From contig NZ_JASBRH010000032.1 of assembly GCF_029961155.1 (NCBI RefSeq), positions 1 through 47,133 on the forward strand: a DNA stretch of 47,133 bases, written 5' to 3'. Origin of the DNA: Pontibacterium granulatum. GTDB taxonomy: Bacteria; Pseudomonadota; Gammaproteobacteria; Pseudomonadales; Balneatricaceae. Every line of letters begins with the position of its first letter. Positions within the stretch are counted from its first letter, which is position 1. Positions 6,051 through 45,325 of this stretch are shown piece after piece. Below the pieces are notes generated by a model, which searched no databases, had not been told where the DNA came from, and saw only the letters and a program-made list of their open reading frames with translations. Position numbers and translations under genes: made by a program.

Positions 6051-6237
6051 AAACCTACGGTCTGTAAGTAAACGGATTTCAACCGGCGGCGACTCAACGG
6101 GATGCGACGCCAAAATGACTGACAGCGCCAGCAGATCACTGAGCGAAAATACTATAGTTTCAGTGTAACTGCGAAGGCCAACAAAACCACAACAATAAGA
6201 ATGCCTACCGCAGCGTAGTGTCATGGGAGTAACTGAG

Positions 6238-27924: not shown

Positions 27925-29052
27925 TCAGGACTTATCCTTTAAATTCACCGAACCAAAGGTCGATTCTTTCTTAGCTTCGCTAAATACCTCTGAAGAACGT
28001 GTGTCTTGCAAAGGCTGCACTTGCTTGCGTTTTGGCAGCGGAGGCTGTGTATCCAGCTCAGGCAGTGGTGCGCCTTTCTTCACAGCCGCGCGTTCTTCGC
28101 TTGGTGGAACCCCCATGTGCTCGCGGTAACACTTGCTGAAATGCGGTGTCGAGACGAAACCACAGGCGGCTGCGACTTCAACGATTGGCATCGTGTTCTG
28201 CATCAGCAACTGGCGTGCGCGTAACAGACGAAGTTTGAGGTAATACTTGGAAGGCGAGCAATCCAGGTATTTCTGGAAAAGACGCTCCAATTGGCGACGA
28301 GAAAGGCCCACATATTCGGCCAGCTCGTCCATCTCGATCGGCTCTTCGATGTTCGCTTCCATCAAGGCCACCACCTCTACCAGCTTCGGCTGCGAAGTGC
28401 CCAGTACGTGACGCAGCGGTACCTTCTGCTGGTCACTTTCGTCACGGATGCGATCACAGATAAACATCTCGGAAATCGCGGCAGACAGGCGGTAACCGTG
28501 TTCCTGCTTGATCAGCTTCAACATCATATCCAGCGGCACCGTGCCACCACTGGCGGTAAAGCGGTTACGGTCCAGACTGAACAGGCTGCTGGTAAAGCGT
28601 ACATGCGGAAAGGCTTCCTGCATGGCGGCCAGGTATTCCCAGTGCACGCTGCAGTCGTAGCCGTCTAACAGACCTGCGGTCGCCAGCGCATGGGCACCGG
28701 TGCAGATACCACCCAGGTTACACCCTTTGCGGTCCATCTCCTTTAACCAGTTCAGATGGGTCTTGTCGTAGGATTTAGCAACGTTCACGCCGCCGCACAC
28801 GATCACTGTATCCAGGCCAAGGTTATCCAAAGCACCGGCATCGGGTGTGATCTTGATGCCATCACTTGCGCTGACCGGCTCACCGTCCAGCGTTAAGGTA
28901 TGCCATTCATATAGCTGTTCACCACTTAACTGATTGGCCATTCGCAACGCCTCAACGGCTGAAGCAAGCGAGATCATGGTGAAGTTGTTGAGTAGGAGGA
29001 AACCGACTGAACGTACAGTGCGCACGTCAGAACCGGATGAAGGGTTTGCCAT
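27925..29052 (-). CDS. gbdR: GbdR, regulator of glycine betaine catabolism
   Basis: This GlxA-type activator is 375 residues from the ATG at 29052 (a GTG at 29064 is also possible). SVGFLLLNNFTMISLASAVE, ALRMANQLSGEQLYEWHTLT and LDGEPVSASDGIKITPDAGA match, from memory, Pseudomonas GbdR, which senses glycine betaine and dimethylglycine and activates gbcA, dgc and sox genes. The sensor elbow keeps GGICTGAHALA (Cys present). The AraC domain (MDELAEYVGLSRRQLERLFQ; AACGFVSTPHFSKCYREHMG) is followed by a non-conserved Lys/Pro-rich tail of about 50 residues. It is upstream of sdaA in the opposite reading sense of control: both are leftward and sdaA lies behind it. Two palindromes lie before its start. 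Confidence 0.88.
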   Translation of the reverse strand: MANPSSGSDVRTVRSVGFLLLNNFTMISLASAVEALRMANQLSGEQLYEWHTLTLDGEPVSASDGIKITPDAGALDNLGLDTVIVCGGVNVAKSYDKTHLNWLKEMDRKGCNLGGICTGAHALATAGLLDGYDCSVHWEYLAAMQEAFPHVRFTSSLFSLDRNRFTASGGTVPLDMMLKLIKQEHGYRLSAAISEMFICDRIRDESDQQKVPLRHVLGTSQPKLVEVVALMEANIEEPIEMDELAEYVGLSRRQLERLFQKYLDCSPSKYYLKLRLLRARQLLMQNTMPIVEVAAACGFVSTPHFSKCYREHMGVPPSEERAAVKKGAPLPELDTQPPLPKRKQVQPLQDTRSSEVFSEAKKESTFGSVNLKDKS

Positions 29053-29118
29053 ATTTAAGCCCACGTCGGCGCTGCCACCACCCAGGCAGACCGCTCTATT
29101 TTTTGTAATTATCCTTAT

Positions 29119-29245: not shown

Positions 29246-30625
29246 TTAACACTCAATGGCGTTTACTGCGAGACCTCCGCGAGAGGTCTCTTTGTATTTG
29301 TCCTGCATGTCCATACCGGTGTCGCGCATGGTTTTGATCACCTTATCCAACGAGATGAAGTGGTCACCGTCTCCACGCAGGGCCATCTGCGTCGCGTTGA
29401 TCGCTTTCATCGCTGCGATGGCGTTACGCTCGATGCATGGCACCTGTACCAGACCGCCCACCGGGTCACAGGTCAAACCCAGGTTATGCTCCAAGCCAAT
29501 CTCTGCTGCGTTTTCTACCTGCTGCGGCGTACCGCCCAGCACTTCACTCAGCCCTGCAGCCGCCATTGCACACGCAGAACCGACTTCGCCCTGGCACCCT
29601 ACTTCAGCACCCGAGATGGACGCGTTCTTCTTACACAGGGAACCGATTGCTGCGGCAGCCAACAGGAAATCCACTACACACGCTTCGGTTGGGTTTGGCG
29701 TGAACTCCATGTAGTACATCAGTACCGCAGGGATGATGCCCGCCGCACCGTTCGTTGGCGCCGTTACCATACGACCACCACCCGCATTCTCTTCGTTTAC
29801 GGCCAGCGCGTAAAGGTTAACCCAGTCCATCGCACCCAGCGTAGAGCTGATCACATTAGGCTTGGTGGAACGGATCAGGGATTTGTGCAGGCTCATCGCA
29901 CGTCGCTTAACGTGCAGGCCACCTGGCAGCGTACCCTCTTTGTGCAGACCGTTGGCGATACACTCTTTCATCGCCGCCCAGATATCCATCAGGCCGTCGC
30001 GTACGTCCTGCTCGCTGCGCCAAACCTTCTCGTTTTCCATCATCAGTTCGCTGATGCGCAGGTTGTTCTCCTGACACATTTTCAGCAGCTCGACTGCGTT
30101 GTTGAAGTCGTAAGGAACCTCTACCTGCGGCACAACGTGAGCGTCTGCCGTTGCTTCGCTCTCGTCGATAACAAAACCACCCCCGATGGAGTAATAGGTA
30201 TTTTCGTACAGCACCTCATCGTTCGCGCCAAATGCGATCAGACGCATGGCGTTCGGGTGATACGGCAGATTCTCCTCAAGCAGGTTCATATCCCGCTCCC
30301 AGATGAACTCGATGTCGTACGTGTTGAGGAACTTCAGGGTATTGGTTTCCTGCAACGTAGCGACTGCTGGCAGGATGATATCCGGATCGACGCTGTGCGG
30401 GCGTTCACCCATCAGACCAATCACCACAGAGTTATCGGTACCGTGACCAACACCGGTGGCGCTTAGAGAACCGAATAGATCGGACTGAATACGTTTCACC
30501 TCGGCGGCTTTGCCGAGGGTTTCAAGATGGGTGGCGAACTCTGCTGCCGCCAGCATTGGACCTACAGTATGAGAACTGGATGGGCCTACGCCTATTTTAA
30601 AAAGATCAAACACACTGATAGACAT
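29246..30625 (-). CDS. sdaA: L-serine dehydratase, iron-sulfur type (SdaA)
   Basis: This 459-residue single-chain enzyme (E. coli SdaA is 454) deaminates L-serine to pyruvate and ammonia. The N-terminus [20 protein letters not shown] is diagnostic. Cysteines for the 4Fe-4S cluster are seen in [20 protein letters not shown] and LTCDPVGG ... QVPCIERN. The start follows GGAGGCAGT. Lying next to gbdR fits its role at the end of the glycine betaine pathway: betaine to dimethylglycine, sarcosine, glycine, serine, then pyruvate. In pseudomonads sdaA-type genes are in the GbdR regulon. Confidence 0.95.
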
Positions 30626-30968: not shown

Positions 30969-31361
30969 TCAGGCTTGTGGTACCGCTGCGTAAGCTACGA
31001 TCTCACACAACATCTCTTCACGTGCCAGACCAGCAACGATCATCGCTGCGCGGTTCGGGTACGGTGCTTCGAAGTATTCGGCGTATACCTTGTTGAATAC
31101 TGGCAACTGAGAGCGATCGGTTACATAGATCAGTACCTGAGTCACATCGTCCATGGTCAACTCTGCCGCTTCGATGGTGTGCTTAAAGTTTTCCATGGTC
31201 TGACGCGCCTGGGCTTCGATCCCCCCTTCAACGACATTGCCCTCTGCATCGATAGGGATCTGTGCGGTAGACAGCGTACCGTTGGCGATGATCGCCCACT
31301 CAAGAGGCGCTTTAGACGCGAACAGGTCAGTTTTAACGGGTGTTTTCATAAGTATTTTCAA
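30969..31361 (-). CDS. RidA/YjgF/Rid family protein (imine/enamine deaminase-like)
   Basis: This 130-residue Rid protein has GNVVEGGIEAQARQTMENFK, IEAAELTMDDVTQVLIYVTD and PYPNRAAMIVAGLAREEMLC. RidA enzymes hydrolyse reactive enamine/imine intermediates; the catalytic Arg normally sits in the R-A-x-x-x-V segment near residue 105, and NRAAMIV fits. The C-terminal EIVAYAAV matches the E-x-x-A ending. It is the last gene of a leftward catabolic operon, so it probably clears an imine formed in that pathway and is not the housekeeping copy. The ATG lacks a strong ribosome site (AAAATACTT upstream), so the start is less certain. Confidence 0.88.
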   Translation of the reverse strand: MKILMKTPVKTDLFASKAPLEWAIIANGTLSTAQIPIDAEGNVVEGGIEAQARQTMENFKHTIEAAELTMDDVTQVLIYVTDRSQLPVFNKVYAEYFEAPYPNRAAMIVAGLAREEMLCEIVAYAAVPQA

Positions 31362-31393
31362 CGTTTTACTAAAAGAACAAAAAGGAAGATCGC

Positions 31394-31432
31394 TGCCACA
31401 CAGTCCCGTCGGAGCACAATGTGTGGCAGCTT
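31394..31432 (-). promoter_or_regulatory. Intercistronic hairpin between BCCT and RidA genes
   Basis: GCTGCCACACA and TGTGTGGCAGC form a perfect 11-bp stem with a 17-nt loop. No immediate T run follows, so RNA processing or 3'-end protection of the BCCT message is more likely than full termination. Confidence 0.5.
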
Positions 31433-31454
31433 TTCAGAGAGTTTAGCGTGCGTC

Positions 31455-33026
31455 TTACAGACCCTGCTCGTCAGCCATCTTGTTCGCGATCTGCGGTGCG
31501 GTCCAAAGAGATGGCAACAGAACCAGGGATACCGGTACAGCAGTCACCACGATGAAGGACTGCAGTGCAGAGATACCACCGGAACCGATAGAGATCAGGA
31601 TTGCCGCCATCAGACCCATCATCACACCCCAGAAAACACGTACGCTGGTCTGTGGGTGGTCGGTACCGGTCATTACCATGGATACCGCGTAGGTCATGGA
31701 GTCACCGGTCGTTGCGACGAAGATTGTAGTCAGGATCAGGAACAGTACAGAGATCAGGAAGCCCATCGGCAACTGTTCTGTGATCGCCAGCAGCGCCGCC
31801 GGCAGGTTGAAGCCTGTGAACGGCTCGGAGATCACACCCGGGTTGCTCAGCTCGAAAGACAAACCTGCACCACCAACAATGGTGAACCAGAAGCAGGTGA
31901 TGATCGGCGCAACAACGGAGATCAGCAGTACCATTTCACGGATCGTGCGACCACGGGAGATACGTGCCACGAACATCGCCATCAGCGGACCGTAACCCAG
32001 GAACCAACCCCAGAAGAACACCGTCCACCAGTCCAGCCAACCTGGGTTAGCACGGAAGGTCGCCATCGGAATAAACTTATCCAGGTAAATACCGAAAGAG
32101 TGCAGGTAACCATCAATAATGAAGCTGGTTGGACCGAACACCAGGATGAACAGCATCAGCGCAACAGCCAGGAATACGTTTGCACGGCTCAGAATCTGGA
32201 TACCCCGGTTCACTCCACTGACTGCGGACACAGTGTACAGACCGATCAGACCAACCAGGATAAATACCTGTGTAGTGTAGGTATTTGGGATACCGAACAG
32301 CTTTTCCAGACCGAAGCTCACCTGCAGCCCCAGGAAGCCGATTGGACCTACGGTACCGGCAACCACAGCCAGTACGCAGCTGGAGTCAACGATCGCACCC
32401 AGCGGGCCCTTCATTACACGGTCGCCCAGTACCGGGTACAGCAACGTGCGCGGTTTCAGCGGCAGACCTTTTTCGTAGTGCAGGTACATGAATACGATAC
32501 CTGTCAGGCTACCCAGGATCGCCCACGCCAGGAAGCCCCAGTGCATAAAGCTCTGAGCGAGTGCGTTGTATGCGGCCTGTACGGTGCCGGTTTCTGCACC
32601 TTCACCGGCAAACAACGGTGGAGGAGAGGTAAAGTGTGCCATCGGCTCTGCCGCCGCCCAGAACACACCGCCACCCGCCAGCAGCGTACACATGATGATG
32701 GAGATCCATTGGAACGTGGAGATATCAGGCGTTTTCGTACCGCCCATAACCACGGCGCCGGTACGGCCAATCGTCAGGAACAGACCAATAACGAAGGTCA
32801 GCAGCAGCAACACCTGCCAGTAGGCGCCGAACATCTTCGTAGACATCCCGAATGCCGCGTTCACCCAGCCTGACACCAAATCGATGTCATACAATGCAAA
32901 CGCTGCGAACAGAGCGAGTACACCTCCGCTGATCAGGAACACGGGCATATCCACGCCTGACAGCATTGATTTATTTGGCATTTCCATCTCCGTTGTAGAA
33001 GTGGCTGCCTGAGTAGTTGTATTCAT
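31455..33026 (-). CDS. BCCT family betaine/choline/carnitine-type transporter
   Basis: This 523-residue carrier has about 12 membrane segments. The BCCT signature is recognisable but altered: WWTVFFWGWFLGYGPLMAMF followed by VARISRGRTIREMV; classical members have WTxFYWAWW. ATTGDSMTYAVSMVMTG matches the end of the BCCT core. Substitution of the second Trp pair and GYGP suggests a subgroup with a different ligand from BetT/CaiT. The start follows AGGAGACTATT. It lies in an operon with ALDH, a dipeptidase-like protein and RidA, so it probably imports the substrate of that pathway by Na+ or H+ coupling. Confidence 0.88.
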   Translation of the reverse strand: MNTTTQAATSTTEMEMPNKSMLSGVDMPVFLISGGVLALFAAFALYDIDLVSGWVNAAFGMSTKMFGAYWQVLLLLTFVIGLFLTIGRTGAVVMGGTKTPDISTFQWISIIMCTLLAGGGVFWAAAEPMAHFTSPPPLFAGEGAETGTVQAAYNALAQSFMHWGFLAWAILGSLTGIVFMYLHYEKGLPLKPRTLLYPVLGDRVMKGPLGAIVDSSCVLAVVAGTVGPIGFLGLQVSFGLEKLFGIPNTYTTQVFILVGLIGLYTVSAVSGVNRGIQILSRANVFLAVALMLFILVFGPTSFIIDGYLHSFGIYLDKFIPMATFRANPGWLDWWTVFFWGWFLGYGPLMAMFVARISRGRTIREMVLLISVVAPIITCFWFTIVGGAGLSFELSNPGVISEPFTGFNLPAALLAITEQLPMGFLISVLFLILTTIFVATTGDSMTYAVSMVMTGTDHPQTSVRVFWGVMMGLMAAILISIGSGGISALQSFIVVTAVPVSLVLLPSLWTAPQIANKMADEQGL

Positions 33027-33168
33027 AATAGTCTCCTGACGGGGCTCTTATATTTATGATTTCTCAGTCAGAGTGCTTTGGAACCTGTGCAGCAACCCGG
33101 TGCACCAGAGGCGCTGCATAGTTTCCAGTTTCGGTAAAACCGGTATTAAATGAGTACTTCAGGGTGAA

Positions 33169-34170
33169 TCAACGCTGTGGCCGCAACGCATCATCCAGGA
33201 AGCTCAGCCAGTTCAGGCCCATAATTTTTGCCACTTCCTCATCACTGAAGCCGCGAGCTTGCAAGCCTGCTGTGATGTTCGGAAAATCCCGGCTGTCACG
33301 GAACCATGACAGCGGGCGTGGCCAGTCCGCATTGGACTTGGAGCCTTCACCGTAATCTTTCTCTTTCGACCAGCGACCGTTGCGCATCCATTCAAGGACA
33401 GACAGCGGCTGATCCTGGCACAAGTCGGTACCGATACCGATGCGGTCTACGCCCATCAGGTCAGCCGTGCTGGCCACCATGTCGCAGAACTCTTCCAGGG
33501 TGCAGTCTGGCCCGTTCTTCAGGTGGAACGGATAGAGACTGAAGCCCAGCAAACCGCCAGATTCACCCAGTGCTTTCAGCACGGTATCGGACTTGTTACG
33601 CAGTGCCGGATGAAAGCTGGTTGGGTTGGCGTGGGAGATCACAATCGGACGTTCCGACAGCTCAATCGCATCCAGCGTGCTGCGTTCGCCGCTGTGACTC
33701 ATATCCACCACCATGCCAACGCGGTTCATCTCTTTGATGACCTGTTTACCGAAGCGGGTTACACCGCTGTCTTCGGCTTCGTAGCAACCACACGCCAGCA
33801 GGCTCTGGTTGTTGTAGGTTAGTTGCATGATCATCAGGTTCAGCTCGCGCATAACCTCAACCATGCCGATGTCATCTTCAATTGGAGAACAGTTCTGCGC
33901 ACCAAACATGATGCCAACCTTGCCCAGTTCTTTCGCACGGCGGATGTCGTCCGTGCTTTTTACCGGCATGATCAGATCAGGATTGTTCTCGAAGTGGCGG
34001 TTCCACTCGGAGATACGCAGCAGTGTCTCGCGAATCTGTTCGTGGTAAACGATGGTGACATGCACCATCGTTACGCCACCTTCGCGCAGCTGTTCGAAGA
34101 TCTGACGGTTCCAGTTGGAGTACTGGAGTCCGTCGACCACGATCAGCTCTTTATGCAGATTAGGTGTCAT
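33169..34170 (-). CDS. Membrane-dipeptidase (M19) family protein with incomplete metal site
   Basis: This 333-residue TIM-barrel protein is of the renal dipeptidase family. Conserved: His159 (VVDMSHSG), His180 (VISHANP) and Asp249 (IGIGTDL), equivalent to His198, His219 and Asp288 of human renal dipeptidase. Missing: the N-terminal His-x-Asp pair (VDGLQY where VDGHND is expected, residues 12-17) and the bridging Glu (FGAQN, Gln92). So only part of the di-zinc site remains. Pseudomonas PA5396, beside the dimethylglycine genes, has the same changes from memory. An amidohydrolase acting on a non-peptide is likely. The ATG at 34170 is preferred over 34191. It begins 13 nt after the ALDH gene. Confidence 0.85.
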   Translation of the reverse strand: MTPNLHKELIVVDGLQYSNWNRQIFEQLREGGVTMVHVTIVYHEQIRETLLRISEWNRHFENNPDLIMPVKSTDDIRRAKELGKVGIMFGAQNCSPIEDDIGMVEVMRELNLMIMQLTYNNQSLLACGCYEAEDSGVTRFGKQVIKEMNRVGMVVDMSHSGERSTLDAIELSERPIVISHANPTSFHPALRNKSDTVLKALGESGGLLGFSLYPFHLKNGPDCTLEEFCDMVASTADLMGVDRIGIGTDLCQDQPLSVLEWMRNGRWSKEKDYGEGSKSNADWPRPLSWFRDSRDFPNITAGLQARGFSDEEVAKIMGLNWLSFLDDALRPQR

Positions 34171-34183
34171 AGGCCTGCTCCGA

Positions 34184-35626
34184 TTAAGCACGCATGTAGG
34201 TAGTTTTAACTACGGTGTAGAACTCTTTCGCGTACGTACCCTGTTCGCGTGGACCGAAGCTGGAATCTTTACGACCGCCAAACGGTACGTGGTAGTCAGT
34301 ACCCGCCGTTGGCAGGTTCACCATCACACAACCGGTCTTGGCGTTACGTTTGAAGTCAGTTGCGTACTTCAGGGACTCAGTGCAGATACCGCCGGTCAGA
34401 CCGAAGTTGGTGTCGTTCAGAGTGGCCAGCGCTTCTGCGTAGTCCTTCACCTTGATGACACATGCGATTGGCGCGAATGCCTCTTCACGGTTGATGCGCA
34501 TGTCGTTGGTGGTTTCGGTGAACAGTGCAGGCTGCATGTAGTAACCTTCCGTCTCTTCTTTCAGGACGTCACCGCCGTATACCAGCTTGCCACCTTCAGA
34601 TTTAGCCAGCTCCAGGTATTCCAGGTTCTGTTCCATCTGACGCGCATCAGCAACCGCACCGATGTGAACACCCTCTTTCAGTGGGTGACCCACAACCAGT
34701 TTCTTCATGCGCTCAACAACCGCTTCTACAAAACGATCGTGGATGCCTTCAGTGACGATCAGACGGGAAGACGCAGTACATTTCTGGCCGGTACCACCGA
34801 ATGCACCGTTAACTGCACACTCAACCGCGTTATCCAGATCCGCATCGTCCAGCACAACCAGTGCGTTTTTAGAGCCCATTTCCAGCTGGCATTTAACCAG
34901 GTTCACAGCAGTAGCCGCAGCTACTTTGCGACCGGTTTCCAGAGAGCCGGTAAATGTCAGCGCGTTGATGTCGCGGGAGTTTATCAGCACATCACCCACT
35001 TGGGAGCCCGGGCCCATGACCAGGTTGAAAGTGCCCGCTGGCAGACCCTGACGGGAGATAATCTCAGTCAGTGCCCATGCGGATGCTGGAACCTGGTTTG
35101 CAGGTTTCCAAACAATTGCGTTACCGAAAGCCAGTGCCGGAGCGATTTTCCAAGCGCCCGTCGCAGTAGGGAAGTTCCATGGAGTGATGATGCCAACAAC
35201 ACCGACAGGCTCACGGCGCGTTTCAATCTCGACGCCTGGACGCACGGAATCAGCAGTTTCACCCATCTGACGCAGGACTTCTGCTGCGTAGTAGTGGAAG
35301 AACTGACCGGAACGGTAAGTCTCACCAACGCCTTCCGCCAGGGTTTTACCTTCTTCGCGGGCCAGAATCGCACCCAGCTCATCTTTGCGTGCGATCAGCT
35401 CATCACCGATTGCCATCAGTACGGAGTAGCGCTGCTCCAGACCGCTCTTCTGCCACTCTTCCTGACCTTTCTGTGCGGCAGCGATAGCAGCTTCGGTCTG
35501 CGCCTTATCAGCCTGCGCGTAGTGACCAATTACATCACTGGTGTCGGCCGGGCTGATGTTTGCCACGGTACCAGTACCTTCTACCCACTCACCGGCGATG
35601 TAGTTACGAAAAACTGAATCAGACAT
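34184..35626 (-). CDS. NAD(P)-dependent aldehyde dehydrogenase (semialdehyde type)
   Basis: This 480-residue ALDH has the catalytic Glu in LEMGSKNALVVLDDADLDNA (usual ELGGK), the nucleophilic Cys in GTGQKCTASSRLIV, the NAD fold segment ITPWNFPTATGAWKIAPALA, and the C-terminal FGGRKDSSFGPREQGTYAKE. The ending and the MGSKN variant are typical of the alpha-ketoglutarate-semialdehyde dehydrogenase branch, so a short carboxylated semialdehyde is the likely substrate. The ATG at 35626 has GAGGTAAAC upstream. It is the first gene of the leftward operon, divergent from a LysR gene across 143 nt with palindromic sites. Confidence 0.92.
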   Translation of the reverse strand: MSDSVFRNYIAGEWVEGTGTVANISPADTSDVIGHYAQADKAQTEAAIAAAQKGQEEWQKSGLEQRYSVLMAIGDELIARKDELGAILAREEGKTLAEGVGETYRSGQFFHYYAAEVLRQMGETADSVRPGVEIETRREPVGVVGIITPWNFPTATGAWKIAPALAFGNAIVWKPANQVPASAWALTEIISRQGLPAGTFNLVMGPGSQVGDVLINSRDINALTFTGSLETGRKVAAATAVNLVKCQLEMGSKNALVVLDDADLDNAVECAVNGAFGGTGQKCTASSRLIVTEGIHDRFVEAVVERMKKLVVGHPLKEGVHIGAVADARQMEQNLEYLELAKSEGGKLVYGGDVLKEETEGYYMQPALFTETTNDMRINREEAFAPIACVIKVKDYAEALATLNDTNFGLTGGICTESLKYATDFKRNAKTGCVMVNLPTAGTDYHVPFGGRKDSSFGPREQGTYAKEFYTVVKTTYMRA

Positions 35627-35699
35627 GTTTACCTCCACAAAGTTGATGGATTCATCTTATTGCCCATGATTTAATAATAAAAATTAATAAATAATATCC

Positions 35700-35755
35700 A
35701 GTGATAAGGTTCTTTTATCACTATGATTAAAGTGCCTGATATAGCGTTTGATAAG
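35700..35755. promoter_or_regulatory. LysR operator region between ALDH and LysR genes
   Basis: AGTGATAA (35700-35707) and TTATCACT (35715-35722) are perfect 8-bp arms with a 7-nt spacer; a further TGATAAG half-site lies at 35749-35755, 15 nt before the LysR start. The same half-site appears in a palindrome at 36935-36953. Confidence 0.65.
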
Positions 35756-35769
35756 AGAGAGATCACCCC

Positions 35770-36669
35770 ATGTTGCCCGAACTGAAGATCACCCAGTTGA
35801 GACACTTTGTCTGGGTTGCAGAGCTAAAGGGATTTCACGCTGCAGCCGAAAAAGCGCACCGCACCCAGCCTGCCATCTCCCTGTCGATCAAGGATCTGGA
35901 GAACAAACTGGGCGAGCCTTTATTTGAAAAACGCAACGCCAAAGCAACCAATGCGGAGCTAACGCCCTTTGGTAAACACTTCCTGCCGCAGGCCAAAGAG
36001 CTGATTGCACACCACGACCGGATCGCCAAGGACATGACGCTGATGGCGGAACACAAAACCGGCCACCTGCGACTGGCGTCGGTACCGTCGATTGCCAGCC
36101 GTATGCTGCCGGAGATCCTCTCCAACTTTGTCGAGAATGCCCCCAACCTGCATATCAGTTTCTATGACGATAATGCGGGGGCTGTGCTGAACATGGTGGA
36201 GAACCAACAGGTGGATTTTGGTATCGCCAGCCTGTTGCATGCAGAAGAACACAGCGACAAAACCTTCATCCCGATCTGGGAAGATAACGTGGGTGTGGTG
36301 TGCCGCACCGATCATCCCCTGGCAAAATTCGATGAGCTGCACTGGGACCAGCTGCGCGAACATCGCCTGATCAGTAACGGTACATCGCGCTTATTGGAAG
36401 ATTCAGAAGCAGAACCGCTGCTGGGACACTCACAGTTCTATATCTCCAACATGATTTCGTTGGTGGCGATGCTGGAGGCTGGCATGGGTGTCACCACCCT
36501 GCCCTGGTTTGCCTTCCCGCAGGAAAGCACCAAGCTGAAGTTTATTCCGCTGACGACGCCGAATGTGGTGCGCCATATTGGCATTATCCGGATGAGTAAC
36601 AAATCGCTCACGCCCGCAGCGGAATCGTTAGTGCAGTTTATTTTGGAGAATAGCGGAGACGCTGAGTAG
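35770..36669 (+). CDS. LysR family regulator of the ALDH/dipeptidase/BCCT operon
   Basis: This 299-residue protein has an N-terminal winged helix (ITQLRHFVWVAELKGFHAAA; HRTQPAISLSIKDLENKLGE) and an effector domain (GHLRLASVPSIASRMLPEIL). It is divergent from the aldehyde dehydrogenase gene, with a strong TGATAA-type dyad between them. The same dyad recurs 1.2 kb to the right before the two-gene operon at 37267, suggesting one regulon covering both arms. The ATG at 35770 has weak ribosome complementarity (GAGAGAGATCACCCC). Confidence 0.92.
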   Translation: MLPELKITQLRHFVWVAELKGFHAAAEKAHRTQPAISLSIKDLENKLGEPLFEKRNAKATNAELTPFGKHFLPQAKELIAHHDRIAKDMTLMAEHKTGHLRLASVPSIASRMLPEILSNFVENAPNLHISFYDDNAGAVLNMVENQQVDFGIASLLHAEEHSDKTFIPIWEDNVGVVCRTDHPLAKFDELHWDQLREHRLISNGTSRLLEDSEAEPLLGHSQFYISNMISLVAMLEAGMGVTTLPWFAFPQESTKLKFIPLTTPNVVRHIGIIRMSNKSLTPAAESLVQFILENSGDAE

Positions 36670-36680
36670 GGCCTTGCTTT

Positions 36681-36750
36681 TGTAGCAGCCCGCTCCGAGG
36701 GCGACATTGAACAACCGTCTATAATGTCGCCCTCGGAGCGGGCTGCTACA
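36681..36750. repeat. Perfect 28-bp inverted repeat
   Basis: The arms 36681-36708 and 36723-36750 are exact reverse complements over 28 bases (TGTAGCAGCCCGC... / ...GCGGGCTGCTACA) with a 14-nt loop. It starts 12 nt after the LysR stop. No T run follows, so it may be a mobile REP-like palindrome that also blocks read-through. Confidence 0.85.
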
Positions 36751-36777
36751 GATACCTCTCTCCTCAAGAACCGCATC

Positions 36778-36861
36778 GTTGGGCATCGCGTTGCGATGGC
36801 CAACCTACAAACCTATTCTCAAGCCCTCCTGTAGGTTGGCCATTGCGCAGCAATGCCCAAC
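36778..36861. repeat. REP-like branched palindrome, copy 1
   Basis: Arms 36778-36809 and 36830-36861 (32 nt each, from GTTGGGCAT to GGCCAACCTACA) pair with five mismatches. The mismatches fall in an inner hairpin that each arm can form alone: ATCGC/GCGAT in the left arm, ATTGC/GCAAT in the right. A second copy lies at 39885-39968 in the opposite orientation. Confidence 0.85.
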
Positions 36862-36934
36862 ACAAAAAAATCCTCAAACACTCCTCCCAACCCAACACCC
36901 ATAACCTTAGAAAAAATAATACCTTTAACAACTT

Positions 36935-36953
36935 TGATAAGCATCACTTATCA
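36935..36953. promoter_or_regulatory. LysR-type dyad upstream of the orphan two-gene operon
   Basis: TGATAAG (36935-36941) and CTTATCA (36947-36953) flank a 5-nt spacer. The half-site equals that found between the ALDH and LysR genes at 35700-35755, pointing to shared control. Confidence 0.6.
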
Positions 36954-37266
36954 GCCGATATAACCTTTTGATTTGTGTGAGCTTAAATCTTTGGCGCAAG
37001 ATAAAACGGTCCCCAGCGACTGGCCAAGGTAGTTTCTGGTGATGCTCAAGGGCTCTGGATGAACACCTTGATTTGTTAGTACCTGATTCAGGGTTAATGA
37101 TTAACCATACAGGTGCGGCTCTCTCTGCGAACAATAACGAGTAAACGCGAAACCAGCAGAGGTAAAGAGAACGTCGGTTTCCAACACATCTATGCTGCTG
37201 CCGGATCAACAACGCCGGCCCATTAACAACACAATACAGATGTGTAGCAATTAGAGGATCATAATA

Positions 37267-38976
37267 ATGACAACGCCTGCAGCTATCCAAACCTCTCTGC
37301 GAGGTGACAACGCATTGCCGCTGCGTCCTGCCAGTCAGGTCATGGATCTGGAGCGCCTGGGGTCGATGCATCAGAGCCGCCTGAGCTTCATGCGCACCCT
37401 TATCCGTCGCATCATGCGCGAACGCTGGCAGATCGAACCTGCCCGCTTCGAACTCGACAACGAAGGTTACGGCACCGTGGTATACGAGGTGCGCGCACCA
37501 CACGGTCTGTTCAGCTTCGTACTGTTCTCTGATTACCTCTCGCCGGAAGAGCGGAACGACCGTGTAATCGCTACCAAATGGGACCTGACCATGGCCCTGG
37601 TAGAGGGTGCGGTCGACGATATCTATCTGGAAAAGCTGCGCCAGAACGTACCTAAACAGGAAGCCGGTCGTGTTGATGCCCGCGTTTTCGTTCTGTCCCG
37701 TGCGAACCGCAGTGCCCGTAACTTCGACTACGTGGTTGATCAGCTGTCCAAAGGGGACCAGCCGGACGTAGAGAAAATCGCCAAGGTCGGTTACCTGTAC
37801 CGCACCACCGCCGTATACGGCAGCGGTAAGCTGGGCATGGCGGATTGGGAAAAAGTCCGCACCAAACACAAAGATTTTGCACGCCCATTTGCCGGTGAAA
37901 TGTTTGTCTGCCTGATGCTGCGTAACTTCAGCCTGCTGCAGGCGGAGCACATTGCTCGCCACCGTTCTCCAGATTCCTACCAGCCGATGGATGCAGATAT
38001 CAAACGTTACTTCGGTATCGGTAACTCCACTGGTCTGGGTATGGCGCCTTACTTGGTTAACCACCCACTGCTGATCAATCAGTGGATCGAGATGCGAGAA
38101 CTGGCGCTGGCTCGCATCCGCGTGCTGGGTAACATCAATGACCGTGTCCGTCACCACCTGGATGAACTGATCGAGCGCTGTGCACTGCACACCGCTGAAA
38201 CGTTCACCGAAGACGCGTGGCAGACCGAAAACAACAAGCTGGTCCTGGCTGACCTGGAAGCACTGAAAGGTTACATCGCCAACGACTTCAGCGACTGGAA
38301 CAACCTGCTGGCCTGGAGCGAAGAAAACTGCTCCGTACAGGGTCAGGAGATGCTGGTATCTATCCTGCTGGAACTCTACCCAGAGCTGGTGGAAGACCTG
38401 GAGGAATACCACAACGCAGAAGAGTTCCTGGACCTAGATCCTCTGATGCCGCTGCAGGAACTCAAGTCAGTCATCGAAACACGTTACGACTGGGCTCTGA
38501 AGATCGACTTCAGTGCGGACGGCGCACGCGAAACCTGCTGGTACCGCTCTGAGGAGAAGATGGAGCCACGTCTGGGCAGCATTGCAGATGTTGAAGCCAA
38601 AGATAAGCAGATGGCACTGGGTGTTGGTTACGCGGTACGTAAGTGCTACGACCAGCTATGCGAATACGTACAGGAGCATCCGGAACACACCACCGCTCGC
38701 TTTATGGTGGCGCGTCCGAAAATGCGCGGCATCGTGCGCCGTATCCAGAGCATGAACCGTTGTGTTTACGGTGATATCCAGGCCAACCTGCTGGATCGCG
38801 AGATCCTACCGATGCACCTGCTGCGCTGCAAACTGGCGTTCTTCGGGGTAAGTAAGTTCGATCCACGTTCCCGTCTGTGGGTACGTAACACCATGTTCCA
38901 GGGCGCACCGCTGCTGGAAGATATCGGACAGACTTTTAACGATGACTGGTTCATGCCTCTGGCGCCAAAGCAGTAA
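37267..38976 (+). CDS. Conserved hypothetical protein (569 aa), orphan
   Basis: I do not recognise a domain in this 569-residue soluble protein. It has no signal peptide or membrane segment. Visible features are a basic N-terminal region (SRLSFMRTLIRRIMRERWQI), the segment YGTVVYEVRAPHGLFSFVLF, AHRA/SRANRSARNFDYVVDQL, YFGIGNSTGLGMAPYLVNHP with a Gly-rich turn, a run of acidic helices (ELVEDLEEYHNAEEFLDLDP), and two Cys-containing stretches near the C-terminus (SMNRCVYGD; LLRCKLAFF). The start follows GAGGATCATAATA. It is co-transcribed with a DUF3726-like gene 12 nt downstream, ending at a strong terminator. Codon use is like its neighbours. A LysR-type dyad upstream matches the one at the ALDH operon, so an enzyme of that pathway is plausible. 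Confidence 0.85.
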   Translation: MTTPAAIQTSLRGDNALPLRPASQVMDLERLGSMHQSRLSFMRTLIRRIMRERWQIEPARFELDNEGYGTVVYEVRAPHGLFSFVLFSDYLSPEERNDRVIATKWDLTMALVEGAVDDIYLEKLRQNVPKQEAGRVDARVFVLSRANRSARNFDYVVDQLSKGDQPDVEKIAKVGYLYRTTAVYGSGKLGMADWEKVRTKHKDFARPFAGEMFVCLMLRNFSLLQAEHIARHRSPDSYQPMDADIKRYFGIGNSTGLGMAPYLVNHPLLINQWIEMRELALARIRVLGNINDRVRHHLDELIERCALHTAETFTEDAWQTENNKLVLADLEALKGYIANDFSDWNNLLAWSEENCSVQGQEMLVSILLELYPELVEDLEEYHNAEEFLDLDPLMPLQELKSVIETRYDWALKIDFSADGARETCWYRSEEKMEPRLGSIADVEAKDKQMALGVGYAVRKCYDQLCEYVQEHPEHTTARFMVARPKMRGIVRRIQSMNRCVYGDIQANLLDREILPMHLLRCKLAFFGVSKFDPRSRLWVRNTMFQGAPLLEDIGQTFNDDWFMPLAPKQ

Positions 38977-38988
38977 GGAGTAGTAACA

Positions 38989-39738
38989 ATGCATATCTCT
39001 ATGAACGAACTGAAAGCTGCACTGCGCCGCTGCTTTGAAGCAACCGGATATTTCGTGGGTAACTACGAAGACGCTGCGAACATGATCCTGTGGTTGGAAA
39101 AGCACGGCCTCAACGGTCTGCAGGAGCTGGAACGTGCACTGCCTTACATCGGCGAAGACAGCGACAAACCGCTGAGCAGTGTTGTTTACGAAGACAGTAC
39201 CTCCGCAATCATCGACAGCCACGGCCGCAGCGCGCTGAACTGCATCGCGGCATCCGTTGATCTGGCCCACGCGAAGGCGCTGGAGAGTGGTATTGCGACA
39301 GTAACCGTGCACAACTGCCACAACCGTATGTTCATCCTGAAAGCCCTGACCGACTGCGGTCGTCGTGGCATCAGCGTAGCGGCGTACTGGCAGAACGGCA
39401 GCGACACCGTGACCGAACACACCGCTGCGATCAAGGCGGGTCAGCGATACCCAAGCTACAGCGAAGCGACCACCTCACTGGAAACCAGCGAAGTGGATGC
39501 ACAGGCACTGACTATCATCTGCAGCTCCCGTGTGGATCTGACCTCCTCCCTGCAGGAGTCCCGCGGCAACCGTGCAGCGCGTTATATCAGCGCTGATCAG
39601 GTTGCTGCAAACAAGGACCTCACCGTAGAAAACGGCGTCGACATCGACGATGCACTGTGGGCAGAGATCAACCGCCTGGGTGCGAAAGTGCTGGTCACCA
39701 ACAGCGAACAATCCCGCCAGGGTGCGGGTGGTCGCTAA
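38989..39738 (+). CDS. DUF3726-like protein (249 aa)
   Basis: This 249-residue protein begins MHISMNELKAALRRCFEATG ... DAANMILWLEKHGLNGLQEL, which I associate from memory with DUF3726, a family of unknown function. The N-terminal half resembles dehydrogenases of the malate/lactate (LdhA-like, YlbC) type that begin with a regulatory helix layer (ALRRCFEATGYFVGNYEDAA), but this is weak. The C-terminal half (VDIDDALWAEINRLGAKVLV) looks structural. The ribosome site AGGAGTAGTAACA is strong. It probably forms a complex with the 569-residue protein upstream, since the gap is 12 nt and both end at the same terminator. Confidence 0.8.
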   Translation: MHISMNELKAALRRCFEATGYFVGNYEDAANMILWLEKHGLNGLQELERALPYIGEDSDKPLSSVVYEDSTSAIIDSHGRSALNCIAASVDLAHAKALESGIATVTVHNCHNRMFILKALTDCGRRGISVAAYWQNGSDTVTEHTAAIKAGQRYPSYSEATTSLETSEVDAQALTIICSSRVDLTSSLQESRGNRAARYISADQVAANKDLTVENGVDIDDALWAEINRLGAKVLVTNSEQSRQGAGGR

Positions 39739-40047: not shown

Positions 40048-41475
40048 CTACAAACCAACCTTTTTAAGTTTGTCGTAAAGATTTGCCCGCGAAATGCCCA
40101 ACAATTTTGCCGCTTCTGTTTTGCGTCCGCGGGTATATGCAAGCGCCTCCATGATAGCTGCGCGTTCAGCATCAAGAATTGCGTCAGCCAAAGGGCGTGG
40201 TCTATGTTGCGGACGAAAACTCGGCTCTTCCATCAAAGGCTCCATAGACTTTACCGATGGTACGGAATTGCTCAACAATGGTCGCAAACACTCAGCATCA
40301 ATCTCAGGGGCGTCGCTCAAGACACAGGCCCGTTCGATTACGTTGTGCAGTTCCCTGACATTACCGGGCCAACTCTGCCTACAGAGCAGCTGGAGTGCAT
40401 CCGGTGTCAGCTCCTTGGCCGGCAGCTCCAGTTGCGCCGAAACCTCATCCACAAAGCGTTCACCCAAGGCCTCAATATCAGTCAATCGATCACGCAGCGG
40501 CGGCAGGTGGATCGGCAACGAACTTAAGCGGTAATAGAGGTCGGCGCGGAAGTGGCCACTCTCAACCCTCTCCATCAGGTTCCGGCTGGTGGCCGCGATG
40601 ATCCGCACATCCACTTTCTTCAACGTGTTTGAGCCAACCGCTTCGAACTCTTTCTCCTGCAGCGCGCGCAGCAACTTGGCCTGCAGATCCACCGGCATAT
40701 CGCCGATCTCGTCTAGAAATAACGTGCCACCGTCCGCGAGCTCGAACTTACCGACCCGCCCCTCCTTGGCCGCACCGGTATAGGCTCCTGGGGCCACGCC
40801 AAAGAACTCGGCTTCAATCAGGTTCTCCGGTATAGCGGCAACGTTGATACTGACAAAGGGTCCGGCGCTGCGGCTGGACAGGTCATGCAGAGCATGGGCA
40901 AACAGCTCCTTGCCGGTACCGGTTTCTCCAGTGAGTAGCACGGAGATATCGAAGCGGGCGGCTTGGCGCACCTGTTTTTTAACTGCCTGCAGGGCATCGC
41001 TACGACCAACAATCTGCGACAATCGGTAGCGGGAGCTACGCTCCAGCGCCAGCTTGTTGCGGGCATCCCTCAGTTGGTTCTGCAGCTGGTTGTACTTGGT
41101 GAGCAAAGGTTTGATATGGCCGACACTTTCACTGGCAACAAAACCAAAACCACCCACCACCTTACCGCGTTCATCCTGCAGCGGAATCGCACTGATCACG
41201 ATCCACTGCTCTTTGATAAACAGCAAATTCAGGAAGATCGGCTCACCACTGGCGATTACACCCGGCAGGTAACTGTTCGGCACAATGTCCGTAATGTGAT
41301 TGCCGATCGGTGACTCATCCAGCTCCAGAAAGTTGTAATACGCTTCGCTGATCCACGTCACCGTCCCCTTAATGTCCACTGCAATCGCATGTTCATAGAA
41401 CTGCTCAAAGGATTCAGTGAAAAATGCGAGTGCCTGCTGCTTGATATCTTGCTGGCCGATTTCATCCCAACGCAT
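40048..41475 (-). CDS. Sigma54-dependent PAS-AAA+-Fis activator
   Basis: This 475-residue protein has a PAS sensor (about 20-125: HAIAVDIKGTVTWISEAYYN), an AAA+ domain with Walker A GETGTGKE, the sigma54-contact loop GAYTGA (a variant of GAFTGA), Walker B GTLFLDEIGDMP and the R-finger region FRADLYYRLSSLPIHLPPLR. A C-terminal Fis helix-turn-helix follows (RGRKTEAAKLLGISRANLYD). The ATG at 41475 has GAGGTTAATCAAT upstream and is preferred to 41541. It is divergent from the acyl-CoA synthetase operon; the gap holds palindromic activator sites and a -24/-12 promoter. The PAS domain probably senses a small acid or its CoA ester. Confidence 0.93.
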   Translation of the reverse strand: MRWDEIGQQDIKQQALAFFTESFEQFYEHAIAVDIKGTVTWISEAYYNFLELDESPIGNHITDIVPNSYLPGVIASGEPIFLNLLFIKEQWIVISAIPLQDERGKVVGGFGFVASESVGHIKPLLTKYNQLQNQLRDARNKLALERSSRYRLSQIVGRSDALQAVKKQVRQAARFDISVLLTGETGTGKELFAHALHDLSSRSAGPFVSINVAAIPENLIEAEFFGVAPGAYTGAAKEGRVGKFELADGGTLFLDEIGDMPVDLQAKLLRALQEKEFEAVGSNTLKKVDVRIIAATSRNLMERVESGHFRADLYYRLSSLPIHLPPLRDRLTDIEALGERFVDEVSAQLELPAKELTPDALQLLCRQSWPGNVRELHNVIERACVLSDAPEIDAECLRPLLSNSVPSVKSMEPLMEEPSFRPQHRPRPLADAILDAERAAIMEALAYTRGRKTEAAKLLGISRANLYDKLKKVGL

Positions 41476-41512
41476 ATTGATTAACCTCAGCGAAAAACCA
41501 TGTCTACAAAGT

Positions 41513-41552
41513 AAGACATTTACGTCTTCATATAAAGACATTAAATGTCTTT
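41513..41552. promoter_or_regulatory. Activator binding sites (UAS) for the sigma54 activator
   Basis: AAAGACATT (41534-41542) and AATGTCTTT (41544-41552) form a perfect 9-bp-arm palindrome. A weaker copy, AAGAC ... GTCTT, lies at 41513-41528 and a half-site AAAGACA at about 41556. They lie about 85 bp before the -24/-12 element, the usual range for a UAS. Confidence 0.7.
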
Positions 41553-41626
41553 AAAAAAAGACACCTCAGACAATCCAACCGACAATAAAATACAAATACT
41601 CATAAATATCAATTAGATATAAACAG

Positions 41627-41642
41627 TGGCACACCCCCTGCA
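41627..41642 (+). promoter_or_regulatory. Sigma54 (-24/-12) promoter
   Basis: TGGCACACCCCCTGCA matches TGGCACG-N4-TTGCW with the correct GG-to-GC spacing (10 bases between). The transcription start would be near 41654, 25 nt before the ATG at 41679. Confidence 0.75.
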
Positions 41643-41678
41643 ATTTCATTGGCAAAATAACAACAAGACTGATGTGTC

Positions 41679-43214
41679 ATGAATATTGCTGAAATTCTCC
41701 GTCGCGCCGACGCGGCCTATACCGATCAACCGGCTATTGTCCTCGGTACCCAGCCCTATCTCACCTACCGTCAGCTTTACCGCCGCGTTGCTGTACTCGC
41801 ACACCACCTGCGTGAGCAGTTCTCTTTACAGCCAGGTGATCGCGTCGCGCTGGTGATGGAAAACCGCCCGGAATATGTCGAGGCAATGTTTGCAGCCTGG
41901 CATGCGGGCCTGGTGGTGGTACCGATGAACGCCAAACTCCACCCAAGCGAGTTCCACTACATCCTGCAAAACAGTGACGCAGCGCTGTGCTTCACCAGCA
42001 ATAAGCTGCACCAACAGCTGTTAGACAGTGCGGGCACGGCCAAGCGCACCCAGCTGATCAACGTGGACAGCAAGCAGTATCTGAGTCTGAGCGAAGGTGA
42101 ACCGCTAGCACTGGAGCCAAAAGATAGCGATGACCTGGCCTGGCTGTTCTACACCAGTGGCACCACCGGTCGCCCAAAAGGCGCGATGCAAAGCCACCGC
42201 AACCTCCACGCCATGCTCAACGGTTTCCTCAGCCAGATTAAATCGGTTGCTTGCGGCGACGCGGTGTATCACGGCGCCCCGATGTCTCATGGCGGCGGCT
42301 ACTACATCCTGCCGTTTATCGCCAAAGGTGGCATTCAGTTGATTCCACCGAGCGGTGGTTTCGACGTACCCGAGCTGCTATCCATGCTGCGCGAACAACG
42401 CAGTGTCTCCTTTTTTGCCGCTCCAACCATGGTCAAACGACTGGTTGAATACCCGGACGCCCAACCGGCAGATTTCGAGAATCTGGACACCATTATCTAT
42501 GGCGGCGCCCCCATGTATCAGACCGATCTGCAGCGCGCTCACCAAGTGTTGGGCAATAAGCTGGTGCAGATCTACGGTCAGGGCGAATGCCCGATGAATA
42601 TCACTGTACTGGACCGCTATCAGCACGCGGAATCACTCAATGGTCTGCAGCTGCAGCGCCTGGCATCGGTTGGCCTCCCCCACTTCGGCATCGAACTGAA
42701 GATAGTTACAGCGGACAACGCAGTTGCAGACACGGGTATTGCGGGCGAGATCTGCGTACACGGCGACGCGGTGATGCTTGGCTACTGGCACAACGATCAG
42801 GCCACTTCAGAAACCCTGCGCGACGGCTGGCTCTATACCGGCGACATCGGCTATCTGGACGAGCAGGGCTTTCTCTATCTCACCGACCGCTCCAAGGACG
42901 TGATTATCAGTGGCGGATCCAACATCTACCCACGCGAGGTTGAAGAGGTACTGCTGCAGCACCCTGACGTCCGTGAAGTCTCGGTAATCGGTATCCCGGA
43001 TGCGGAGTGGGGTGAGCTTGTCGTGGCCTATGTATCACCGACGCCGGGCACAGAACTCAACAACGACAGGCTCGAACAGTACTGCCTGGAAAAGATGGCG
43101 CGCTTCAAGCGGCCCAAGCTGTACCGCTTCCTGGACAAATTACCGAAGAACAGCACCGGCAAGATCCTGAAAACCGCCCTGCGCCAACACTTCGACTGCA
43201 CAAATAAAAGCTAA
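41679..43214 (+). CDS. Acyl-CoA synthetase (AMP-forming, class I)
   Basis: This 511-residue ANL-family ligase has the P-loop-like motif LFYTSGTTGRPKGAM (about 165), the A5 motif YGQGECPMNIT, motif YTGDIGYLDEQGFLYLTDRS, the hinge KDVIISGGSNIYPREVEEVL and the C-terminal catalytic Lys in LPKNSTGKILKTAL. It activates a carboxylic acid to its CoA thioester through an acyl-AMP. With thiolase and 3-hydroxybutyrate dehydrogenase following, acetoacetate or another short beta-keto/hydroxy acid is a likely substrate, but medium-chain acids are possible. It is the first gene after the sigma54 promoter. Confidence 0.9.
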   Translation: MNIAEILRRADAAYTDQPAIVLGTQPYLTYRQLYRRVAVLAHHLREQFSLQPGDRVALVMENRPEYVEAMFAAWHAGLVVVPMNAKLHPSEFHYILQNSDAALCFTSNKLHQQLLDSAGTAKRTQLINVDSKQYLSLSEGEPLALEPKDSDDLAWLFYTSGTTGRPKGAMQSHRNLHAMLNGFLSQIKSVACGDAVYHGAPMSHGGGYYILPFIAKGGIQLIPPSGGFDVPELLSMLREQRSVSFFAAPTMVKRLVEYPDAQPADFENLDTIIYGGAPMYQTDLQRAHQVLGNKLVQIYGQGECPMNITVLDRYQHAESLNGLQLQRLASVGLPHFGIELKIVTADNAVADTGIAGEICVHGDAVMLGYWHNDQATSETLRDGWLYTGDIGYLDEQGFLYLTDRSKDVIISGGSNIYPREVEEVLLQHPDVREVSVIGIPDAEWGELVVAYVSPTPGTELNNDRLEQYCLEKMARFKRPKLYRFLDKLPKNSTGKILKTALRQHFDCTNKS

Positions 43215-43253
43215 GGGACTGAATTACAGGTTCCCCAACGAATTGAGGTAACA

Positions 43254-44408: not shown

Positions 44409-44427
44409 GCACAGAGGAGATTTCAAA

Positions 44428-45210: not shown

Positions 45211-45325
45211 TCGGACAGTAACAGGTTCACCCATTTCCCAATTTGGGATAACCAGCAGCCGTCCGGTCAACAGATCACCCGGCGGACTGCTTCAAATTGA
45301 TAGAAAAACCATCAGGAGCGCAATC

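What the first reader, a model, noticed from the sequence alone, without database searches (positions are those of the whole stretch)
30969..39738. Candidate undescribed catabolic system: BCCT/ALDH/dipeptidase-like/RidA arm plus orphan 569-aa and DUF3726-like arm
A LysR gene sits between a leftward operon (ALDH, divergent M19 'dipeptidase', BCCT carrier, RidA) and a rightward operon of an unrecognised 569-residue protein and a DUF3726-like protein. Both arms have TGATAA-type dyads upstream. The chemistry fits: a betaine-like carrier, an unknown enzyme pair, an amidohydrolase-like protein, an imine-clearing RidA and a semialdehyde dehydrogenase of the ketoglutarate-semialdehyde branch. This would suit ring opening of an N-methylated heterocycle. 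Five catabolic genes plus one regulator is also the count I recall for a reported homarine operon (homABCDER), but I cannot confirm gene identity from memory.
Basis: partly seen in the sequence, partly recalled or inferred. Interest (0 to 1): 0.9.

Follow-up and report, generated by a model that had tools for sequence, protein, structure and literature searches.

The report
Homarine-type breakdown operon, RidA variant
A marine bacterium carries a conserved seven-gene set that probably breaks down homarine, a ring-shaped algal osmolyte, using a key protein of a shape with no known match and an alternative last step that would release methylamine.

Summary
In detail: RidA, BCCT, M19-like and ALDH leftward; LysR, a 569-aa orphan and DUF3726 rightward; TGATAA-N7-TTATCA dyads before both arms. 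The neighbourhood is conserved: in 69 loci with wide flanks, ALDH occurs in 62, M19 in 67, DUF3726 in 67, LysR in 60, BCCT in 49. The 569-aa family has no Pfam, NCBIfam or PDB relative; its model (pLDDT 90) matches no solved fold. DUF3726 is a shrunken relative of Ldh2/DpkA imine reductases. Some relatives add an Ldh2 gene (five enzymes plus LysR) and some a probable N-methylglutamate dehydrogenase. This fits the reported homarine pathway (homABCDER is recalled; that paper could not be read). New point: RidA and Ldh2 never share a locus (45 RidA, 20 Ldh2, 36 neither, 0 both, of 101). In 20 of 24 RidA genomes no candidate methylglutamate dehydrogenase was found. The window's genome shows no Ldh2, no such dehydrogenase, no gmaS, no methylamine dehydrogenase. 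Proposed mechanism: the 569/DUF3726 pair opens the ring, ALDH oxidises, M19 deformylates, RidA hydrolyses the N-methylimine to 2-oxoglutarate plus methylamine, where Ldh2 strains reduce it to N-methylglutamate.

The parts
30969..31361 (-). RidA-family protein (likely start 31349); proposed hydrolase of the N-methylimine
   Evidence: PF01042 E 2.3e-22; Arg of the PNRAA stretch conserved at >=95% of 45 cluster RidAs
31455..33026 (-). BCCT carrier, proposed uptake of the betaine-like substrate
   Evidence: PF02028 E 5.8e-152
33169..34191 (-). M19-like amidohydrolase (likely start 34170), proposed N-deformylase
   Evidence: PF01244 E 2.9e-82; best solved relative 2i5g 'amidohydrolase' E 3.6e-74; altered metal site
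34184..35638 (-). aldehyde dehydrogenase (likely start 35626), proposed C5-semialdehyde oxidation
   Evidence: PF00171; best NCBIfam models NF042993 and NF052305, 2-oxoglutarate semialdehyde type, both below cut-off
35702..35720 (.). TGATAA-N7-TTATCA dyad before the left arm, probable LysR operator
35770..36669 (+). LysR regulator
   Evidence: PF00126 and PF03466
36935..36953 (.). TGATAA-N7-TTATCA dyad before the right arm, probable LysR operator
37267..38976 (+). 569-aa orphan of a family without a known fold, proposed ring-opening enzyme
   Evidence: no Pfam or NCBIfam hit; 57-row alignment; pLDDT 90.4; no Foldseek PDB match at E<=0.001
38989..39738 (+). DUF3726 protein, shrunken Ldh2/DpkA-fold partner of the 569-aa protein
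   Evidence: PF12525 E 1.4e-25; Foldseek match to Ldh2 structures E 3.4e-12; natural fusion with the 569 protein in Mesorhizobium

Best explanation
This is a LysR-controlled operon pair for breaking down homarine (N-methylpicolinate) or a very close N-methylpyridinium carboxylate. BCCT imports it. The 569-aa protein with DUF3726 opens the ring between C5 and C6, leaving an N-formyl-N-methyl group on C2 and an aldehyde at C5. ALDH oxidises the aldehyde. The M19-like amidohydrolase removes the formyl group, giving 2-(methylimino)glutarate. RidA hydrolyses that imine to 2-oxoglutarate and methylamine; strains that have Ldh2 instead reduce it to N-methylglutamate, which N-methylglutamate dehydrogenase turns into glutamate. 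Shown: the genes, their conserved linkage, the operator-like sites, RidA/Ldh2 exclusion within loci, and failure to find the downstream enzymes in the own genome. Inferred: the substrate and every chemical step.
For: Linkage across 69 wide-flank loci, BCCT in 49 of them; betaine-type ABC genes beside the Aminobacter locus. A Marinomonas cluster Ldh2 has delta1-piperideine-2-carboxylate reductase as its closest solved relative (E 3.2e-49); that enzyme type makes N-methyl-L-amino acids (PMC6110843 passages). Divergent SoxA/SoxB genes (probable mgd) lie directly downstream of DUF3726 in L058, L068, L091 and L097, and after BCCT in L093. Nine of 10 genomes with mgd-type but no gmaS are non-RidA, so their N-methylglutamate would have to come from elsewhere, such as this pathway. 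RidA 45, Ldh2 20, both 0, of 101 loci. SoxA paralogues under the curated sarcosine-oxidase cut-off (1164 bits): 10 of 15 Ldh2 genomes, 4 of 24 RidA genomes (Fisher p 0.0024). Own genome: one ordinary SoxA at 1484.8 bits, no Ldh2 in a search that rings in 46 of 59 genomes, no gmaS over cut-off, no methylamine dehydrogenase light chain. 32 of 37 operator-like sites flank the LysR gene, 1.5 expected if uniform. Mgd takes part in homarine catabolism (PMC13390433 passage).
Against: No substrate was tested and the homarine paper could not be read. 36 of 101 loci show neither RidA nor Ldh2 (18 of 69 with wide flanks), so a third solution or an unlinked gene exists. Only 8 of the 20 Ldh2 genes lie directly downstream on the same strand; 8 lie upstream and 4 on the opposite strand, up to 7.4 kb off. 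NCBIfam's best model for the two Ldh2 proteins scanned is L-sulfolactate dehydrogenase, below cut-off. Thirteen of 24 RidA genomes have some Ldh2-family gene elsewhere, mostly weak. Four of 24 RidA genomes have mgd-type genes. In Mesorhizobium the adjacent transporter is annotated as branched-chain type, and Phaeobacter shows no adjacent BCCT. L059 and L060 show LysR-569-DUF3726 without ALDH or M19 in 10.8 kb upstream (1.9 and 8.2 kb downstream held), although the L059 genome has a second 569 copy. The 569 protein shows no cofactor or metal motif that I recognise, so oxygenative opening is a guess from the recalled product. Whether RidA accepts an N-methylimine is unknown. Genomes are related, so the Fisher values overstate independence.
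Confidence: 0.55

Rival explanations
1. The cluster degrades another N-methylated compound (for example trigonelline, a proline-type betaine or N-methylpyridone); RidA is only a general imine guard and Ldh2 has an unrelated role.
For: The substrate was not tested. RidA proteins are generic imine hydrolases by established knowledge. 36 of 101 loci have neither gene, and 12 of 20 Ldh2 genes are not directly downstream on the same strand.
Against: RidA and Ldh2 never share a locus, although the RidA label needs 9 changes on the tree, or 5 between RidA and Ldh2 when loci with neither are left out. Mgd-type genes next to some clusters point to N-methylglutamate, which fits a 2-carboxylated ring better than the alternatives.
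Confidence: 0.25
2. The window cluster is exactly the published hom system, and RidA merely assists it; N-methylglutamate is still made by an unlinked enzyme.
For: The core genes are shared with Ruegeria.
Against: The window's genome has no Ldh2 at E<=0.001 in a search that rings in 46 of 59 genomes, and only one SoxA, an ordinary one.
Confidence: 0.15
3. The 569/DUF3726 pair is an NAD(P)H-dependent ring reductase, with ring opening by hydrolysis rather than oxygen.
For: DUF3726 has the Ldh2 fold. The 569 family has no invariant Cys and one invariant His in 57 rows, so no obvious metal site.
Against: DUF3726 has His at the column aligned to the Ldh2 SHG His in only 22 of 51 sequences and is about 100 columns shorter. 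Hydrolysis of a reduced ring would give a six-carbon acid, not a glutamate skeleton.
Confidence: 0.2

Closest known systems
Homarine pathway, homABCDER (Ferrer-Gonzalez et al. 2026, Nat Microbiol 11:1531; seen only as a citation and one sentence in PMC13390433)
   Same: Five enzymes plus LysR in the TM1040 locus, matching the recalled count; link to Mgd in some relatives; present in 52 of 54 Ruegeria-group genomes
   Different: The window has RidA in place of Ldh2 and no Mgd was found in its genome; hom gene identities were not read
Trigonelline pathway, tgn genes of Acinetobacter (recalled, no call)
   Same: Logic of ring opening to an N-methylformamide aldehyde, then ALDH, then amide hydrolysis
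   Different: tgn uses a two-component flavin monooxygenase (recalled); the 569 family has no recognisable relative
[quoted passage not shown] PDB 1wtj, 2cwf, 2cwh)
   Same: Closest solved relative of a cluster Ldh2; fold shared by DUF3726
   Different: The window has no Ldh2, and DUF3726 is shorter and lacks a conserved His at the aligned column
2i5g amidohydrolase (P. aeruginosa PA5396, organism and name recalled)
   Same: Best solved relative of the M19-like protein
   Different: Its function is unknown to me

Membership tests
Homarine (hom) operon | Five catabolic genes plus one regulator (recalled) | tested here: inconclusive
   TM1040 locus has ALDH, M19, 569, DUF3726, Ldh2 and LysR, plus BCCT; the published gene identities could not be read
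Homarine (hom) operon | Product reaches glutamate through N-methylglutamate dehydrogenase (Mgd) | tested here: not met
   Own genome has one ordinary SoxA (1484.8 bits, cut-off 1164) and no second SoxA-type match at E<=1e-60, and no gmaS over cut-off. Mgd-type genes adjoin the cluster in relatives such as L058 and L097
Homarine (hom) operon | Growth on homarine | not testable with these tools
   -
Conserved LysR-ALDH-M19-569-DUF3726 cluster | All core genes linked | tested here: met
   Window; linkage counts over 69 loci
M19 membrane dipeptidase | Two-metal site with HxD and bridging Glu (recalled) | tested here: not met
   D20 in 89, Q23 in 87, Y24 in 87 and Q99 in 89 of 89 full-length cluster M19s
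Ldh2/DpkA reductase (DUF3726) | Fold | tested here: met
   Foldseek E 3.4e-12 to 6.3e-8 for 27 chains
Ldh2/DpkA reductase (DUF3726) | Conserved active-site His (recalled) and full-length nucleotide domain | tested here: not met
   His in 22 of 51; 232 columns aligned over 340 template columns
RidA | Conserved substrate-binding Arg (recalled) | tested here: met
   R122 (L039 ORF numbering) conserved at >=95% of 45 cluster RidAs

The most novel reading that the evidence does not exclude
Two chemically distinct endings exist for one ring-cleavage pathway: Ldh2 plus Mgd keeps the methyl and nitrogen as glutamate, while RidA releases methylamine and 2-oxoglutarate. The ring itself is opened by a two-protein enzyme with a fold that has no detected match among solved structures. 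RidA-type marine bacteria would then be a methylamine source from homarine.
Probability: 0.35. Interest if true: 0.75.

Novelty: new variant of a known kind. Interest (0 to 1): 0.55.

Why it matters
Homarine is an algal osmolyte found at high concentration in diatom cells (passages of PMC12817926). If the RidA ending is real, the same substrate feeds either glutamate or free methylamine depending on the bacterium, which bears on marine methylamine budgets. The 569-aa family is a widespread, unnamed protein with no detected structural relative, sitting where a ring-opening enzyme must be; this makes the chemistry directly testable.

Tried and rejected
Rejected: ordinary dipeptidase (altered metal residues). 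Set aside, not excluded: proline-type betaine as substrate. Few gene families recur beyond the core and I identified no proline-betaine demethylase among them, but I ran no such query.

Led nowhere: sequence relatives of the 569 protein in the PDB, Pfam for 57 members (best E 0.014), viral structures (best E 0.054), PHROGs. SAR11 could not be tested by name. A natural 569-DUF3726 fusion in a source allowed for structure prediction was sought and not found.

Cuts. A first score cut for mgd (750 bits against L058) misses a second mgd type: seven non-RidA genomes and two RidA genomes have gmaS but no hit over that cut; with it, mgd-type is in 8 of 15 Ldh2 and 4 of 24 RidA genomes (Fisher p 0.031). 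I repeated the test with TIGR01372 scores. Under its curated cut-off: 10 of 15 against 4 of 24 (p 0.0024; 9 of 14 and p 0.0048 without G417, whose matches are cut by contig ends). With a line of 1345 bits, chosen after seeing the scores: 14 of 15 against 4 of 24 (p 4.7e-6; 13 of 14 without G417); four of those 14 (G190, G395, G411, G416) are over the curated cut-off and may be ordinary sarcosine oxidase. The PF02975 search had no positive among its 14 control genomes, but rang in 3 of 24 queried genomes. TIGR01372 rang in 0 of 14 control genomes and 49 of 59 queried.

Rows dropped: L001-L017 (short copies, most of loci fetched larger) from the 101-locus counts; L038 from the tree (score under 300); 5 of 102 M19 rows under 281 aa and then 8 short copies, leaving 89; L042 not held.
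Full report
Observation. The two TGATAA-N7-TTATCA dyads are the only exact ones in the window; none appears in 100 shuffles.

Conservation. Homologues of the 569-aa protein occur in 16 of 369 sampled genomes of the class, own genome included, 29 of 398 of the phylum, own included and searched with the Mesorhizobium fused protein, 52 of 54 genomes of the Ruegeria genus group, and 168 of 72,556 plasmid records. I compared 101 loci (6 plasmid, 15 unnamed-genome, 80 named, many of them metagenome assemblies). In the 69 with more than 7 kb on the left and 5 kb on the right of the middle of the 569 gene, ALDH was present in 62, M19 in 67, DUF3726 in 67, LysR in 60 and BCCT in 49, counted within 8.5 kb. 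Gene order varies: the leftward/rightward split of the window recurs in Marinobacterium, Amphritea, Neptunomonas and some Pseudomonas; Halomonas, Vibrio and alphaproteobacteria mostly have one rightward operon. Domibacillus has a rearranged set (L108). In Mesorhizobium the 569 and DUF3726 proteins are one fused chain, which suggests that they work together.

The pair. None of 57 members of the 569 family matches Pfam better than E 0.014. The AlphaFold model has pLDDT 90.4 and pTM 0.91. Foldseek finds no PDB match at E<=0.001; the best is 0.62. DUF3726 models at pLDDT 89.7 and matches 27 chains, all of the Ldh2 kind by their titles, at E<=0.001. It is shorter by about 100 columns, has His at the column aligned to the Ldh2 SHG His in 22 of 51 sequences, and has a C-terminal tail (S242, A246, G247 invariant in 51) without a counterpart in that alignment. 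I read it as a subunit derived from an imine reductase, not as a reductase.

The other enzymes. The ALDH resembles 2-oxoglutarate-semialdehyde dehydrogenases, below their curated cut-offs. The M19-like protein's best solved relative is 2i5g; of 89 full-length cluster M19s, Q99, H166, H187 and D256 are kept in all and Q23 and Y24 in 87. An N-deformylase role is inferred.

Two endings. RidA lies in 45 of the 101 loci, Ldh2 in 20, both in none, neither in 36. In Marinomonas (L046) Ldh2 takes RidA's place after BCCT. Of the 20 Ldh2 genes, 8 lie directly downstream on the same strand, 8 upstream, 4 on the opposite strand. On a quick 569 tree of 101 rows the RidA label needs 9 changes, 6 forced by strong branches; 5 if loci with neither gene are left out. 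The Marinomonas Ldh2's closest solved relative is the piperideine-2-carboxylate reductase, an enzyme type that makes N-methyl-L-amino acids (PMC6110843, passages only); NCBIfam's best model for two Ldh2 proteins is L-sulfolactate dehydrogenase, below cut-off. A divergent SoxA/SoxB set, in L058 below the sarcosine-oxidase cut-off (860 against 1164 bits), lies directly downstream of DUF3726 in L058, L068, L091 and L097 and after BCCT in L093. In five other genomes the same type lies within about 10 kb of gmaS (G371, G372, G047, G390, G155), so I call it mgd-type by inference. The SoxA genes beside the clusters of L020 and L101 are ordinary (1356 and 1459 bits).

Genome test. Of 59 genomes, mgd-type by the first cut occurs in 4 of 24 RidA, 8 of 15 Ldh2 and 7 of 20 other genomes; mgd-type without gmaS in 1, 6 and 3. 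By TIGR01372 scores, 8 RidA genomes have no SoxA at E<=1e-60, 12 have only ordinary ones of at least 1440 bits, and 4 have an mgd-type; under the curated cut-off the counts are 10 of 15 Ldh2 against 4 of 24 RidA (p 0.0024; kinship is not corrected). Other cuts are told under Tried and rejected. Eleven of 24 RidA genomes have no Ldh2-family gene at all, 13 have one, mostly weak. The window's genome (75 contigs, completeness 100) has no Ldh2, one ordinary SoxA, no gmaS over cut-off and no methylamine dehydrogenase light chain. Methylamine made there would probably leave the cell.

Control. Sites with at most one mismatch to the dyad number 37 in the 101 loci; 32 lie in the flanks of the cluster LysR, 1.5 expected if uniform (base composition of the gaps not corrected). 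They occur there in 24 of 43 RidA loci that have LysR; 19 show none. The spacing fits a T-N11-A LysR box (recalled rule).

Link to homarine. A 2026 paper (PMC13390433, two passages seen) states that Mgd takes part in homarine catabolism and cites the homarine paper, which is not held. The name homABCDER and N-methylglutamate as a product are recalled, from no call. Ruegeria pomeroyi consumes homarine quickly (PMC12817926, passages). Searches for homABCDE and DUF3726 found no paper. A search with homarine and RidA among four terms listed 15 of 132 papers, none holding both; one with homarine and membrane dipeptidase among five terms listed all 11, none holding both. Whether the homarine paper already describes a RidA branch is unknown to me.

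Verdict. Probably a variant of a recently described pathway, with a well-supported conserved core, an unproven substrate, an enzyme pair whose main member has no known fold, and a new, testable idea about the last step.

Noticed in passing
window 36681-36750 and 36778-36860: Two inverted-repeat elements in the LysR-569 gap; 81 matches in the own genome, self and both strands counted, so a repeat family of the REP kind.
   Followed up: partly
window 27925-29064: GbdR regulator of choline and betaine use (574 bits, cut-off 480), about 2 kb from the RidA gene. A Rieske-like gene (6223-7446) and a serine dehydratase-like gene (29246-30625) were named by eye only.
   Followed up: no
window 40048-46396: Sigma-54 regulator followed by CoA ligase-, thiolase-, SDR- and TRAP-like genes (by eye), apparently another catabolic cluster.
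   Followed up: no
L059 and L060: LysR-569-DUF3726 without ALDH or M19 in 10.8 kb upstream; the L059 genome has a second 569 copy beside an Ldh2 gene.
   Followed up: partly
L021 11869-14403: 569 and DUF3726 fused into one chain in Mesorhizobium.
   Followed up: partly
L108, L099 and L090: The cluster in Bacillota (Domibacillus) with changed gene order, and in a contig labelled Anaerolineae, which may be misbinned.
   Followed up: no
L155: Marinobacterium jannaschii: an mgd-type operon with formyltransferase- and FolD-domain genes and an Ldh2 nearby, although its 569 cluster is of the RidA type.
   Followed up: partly
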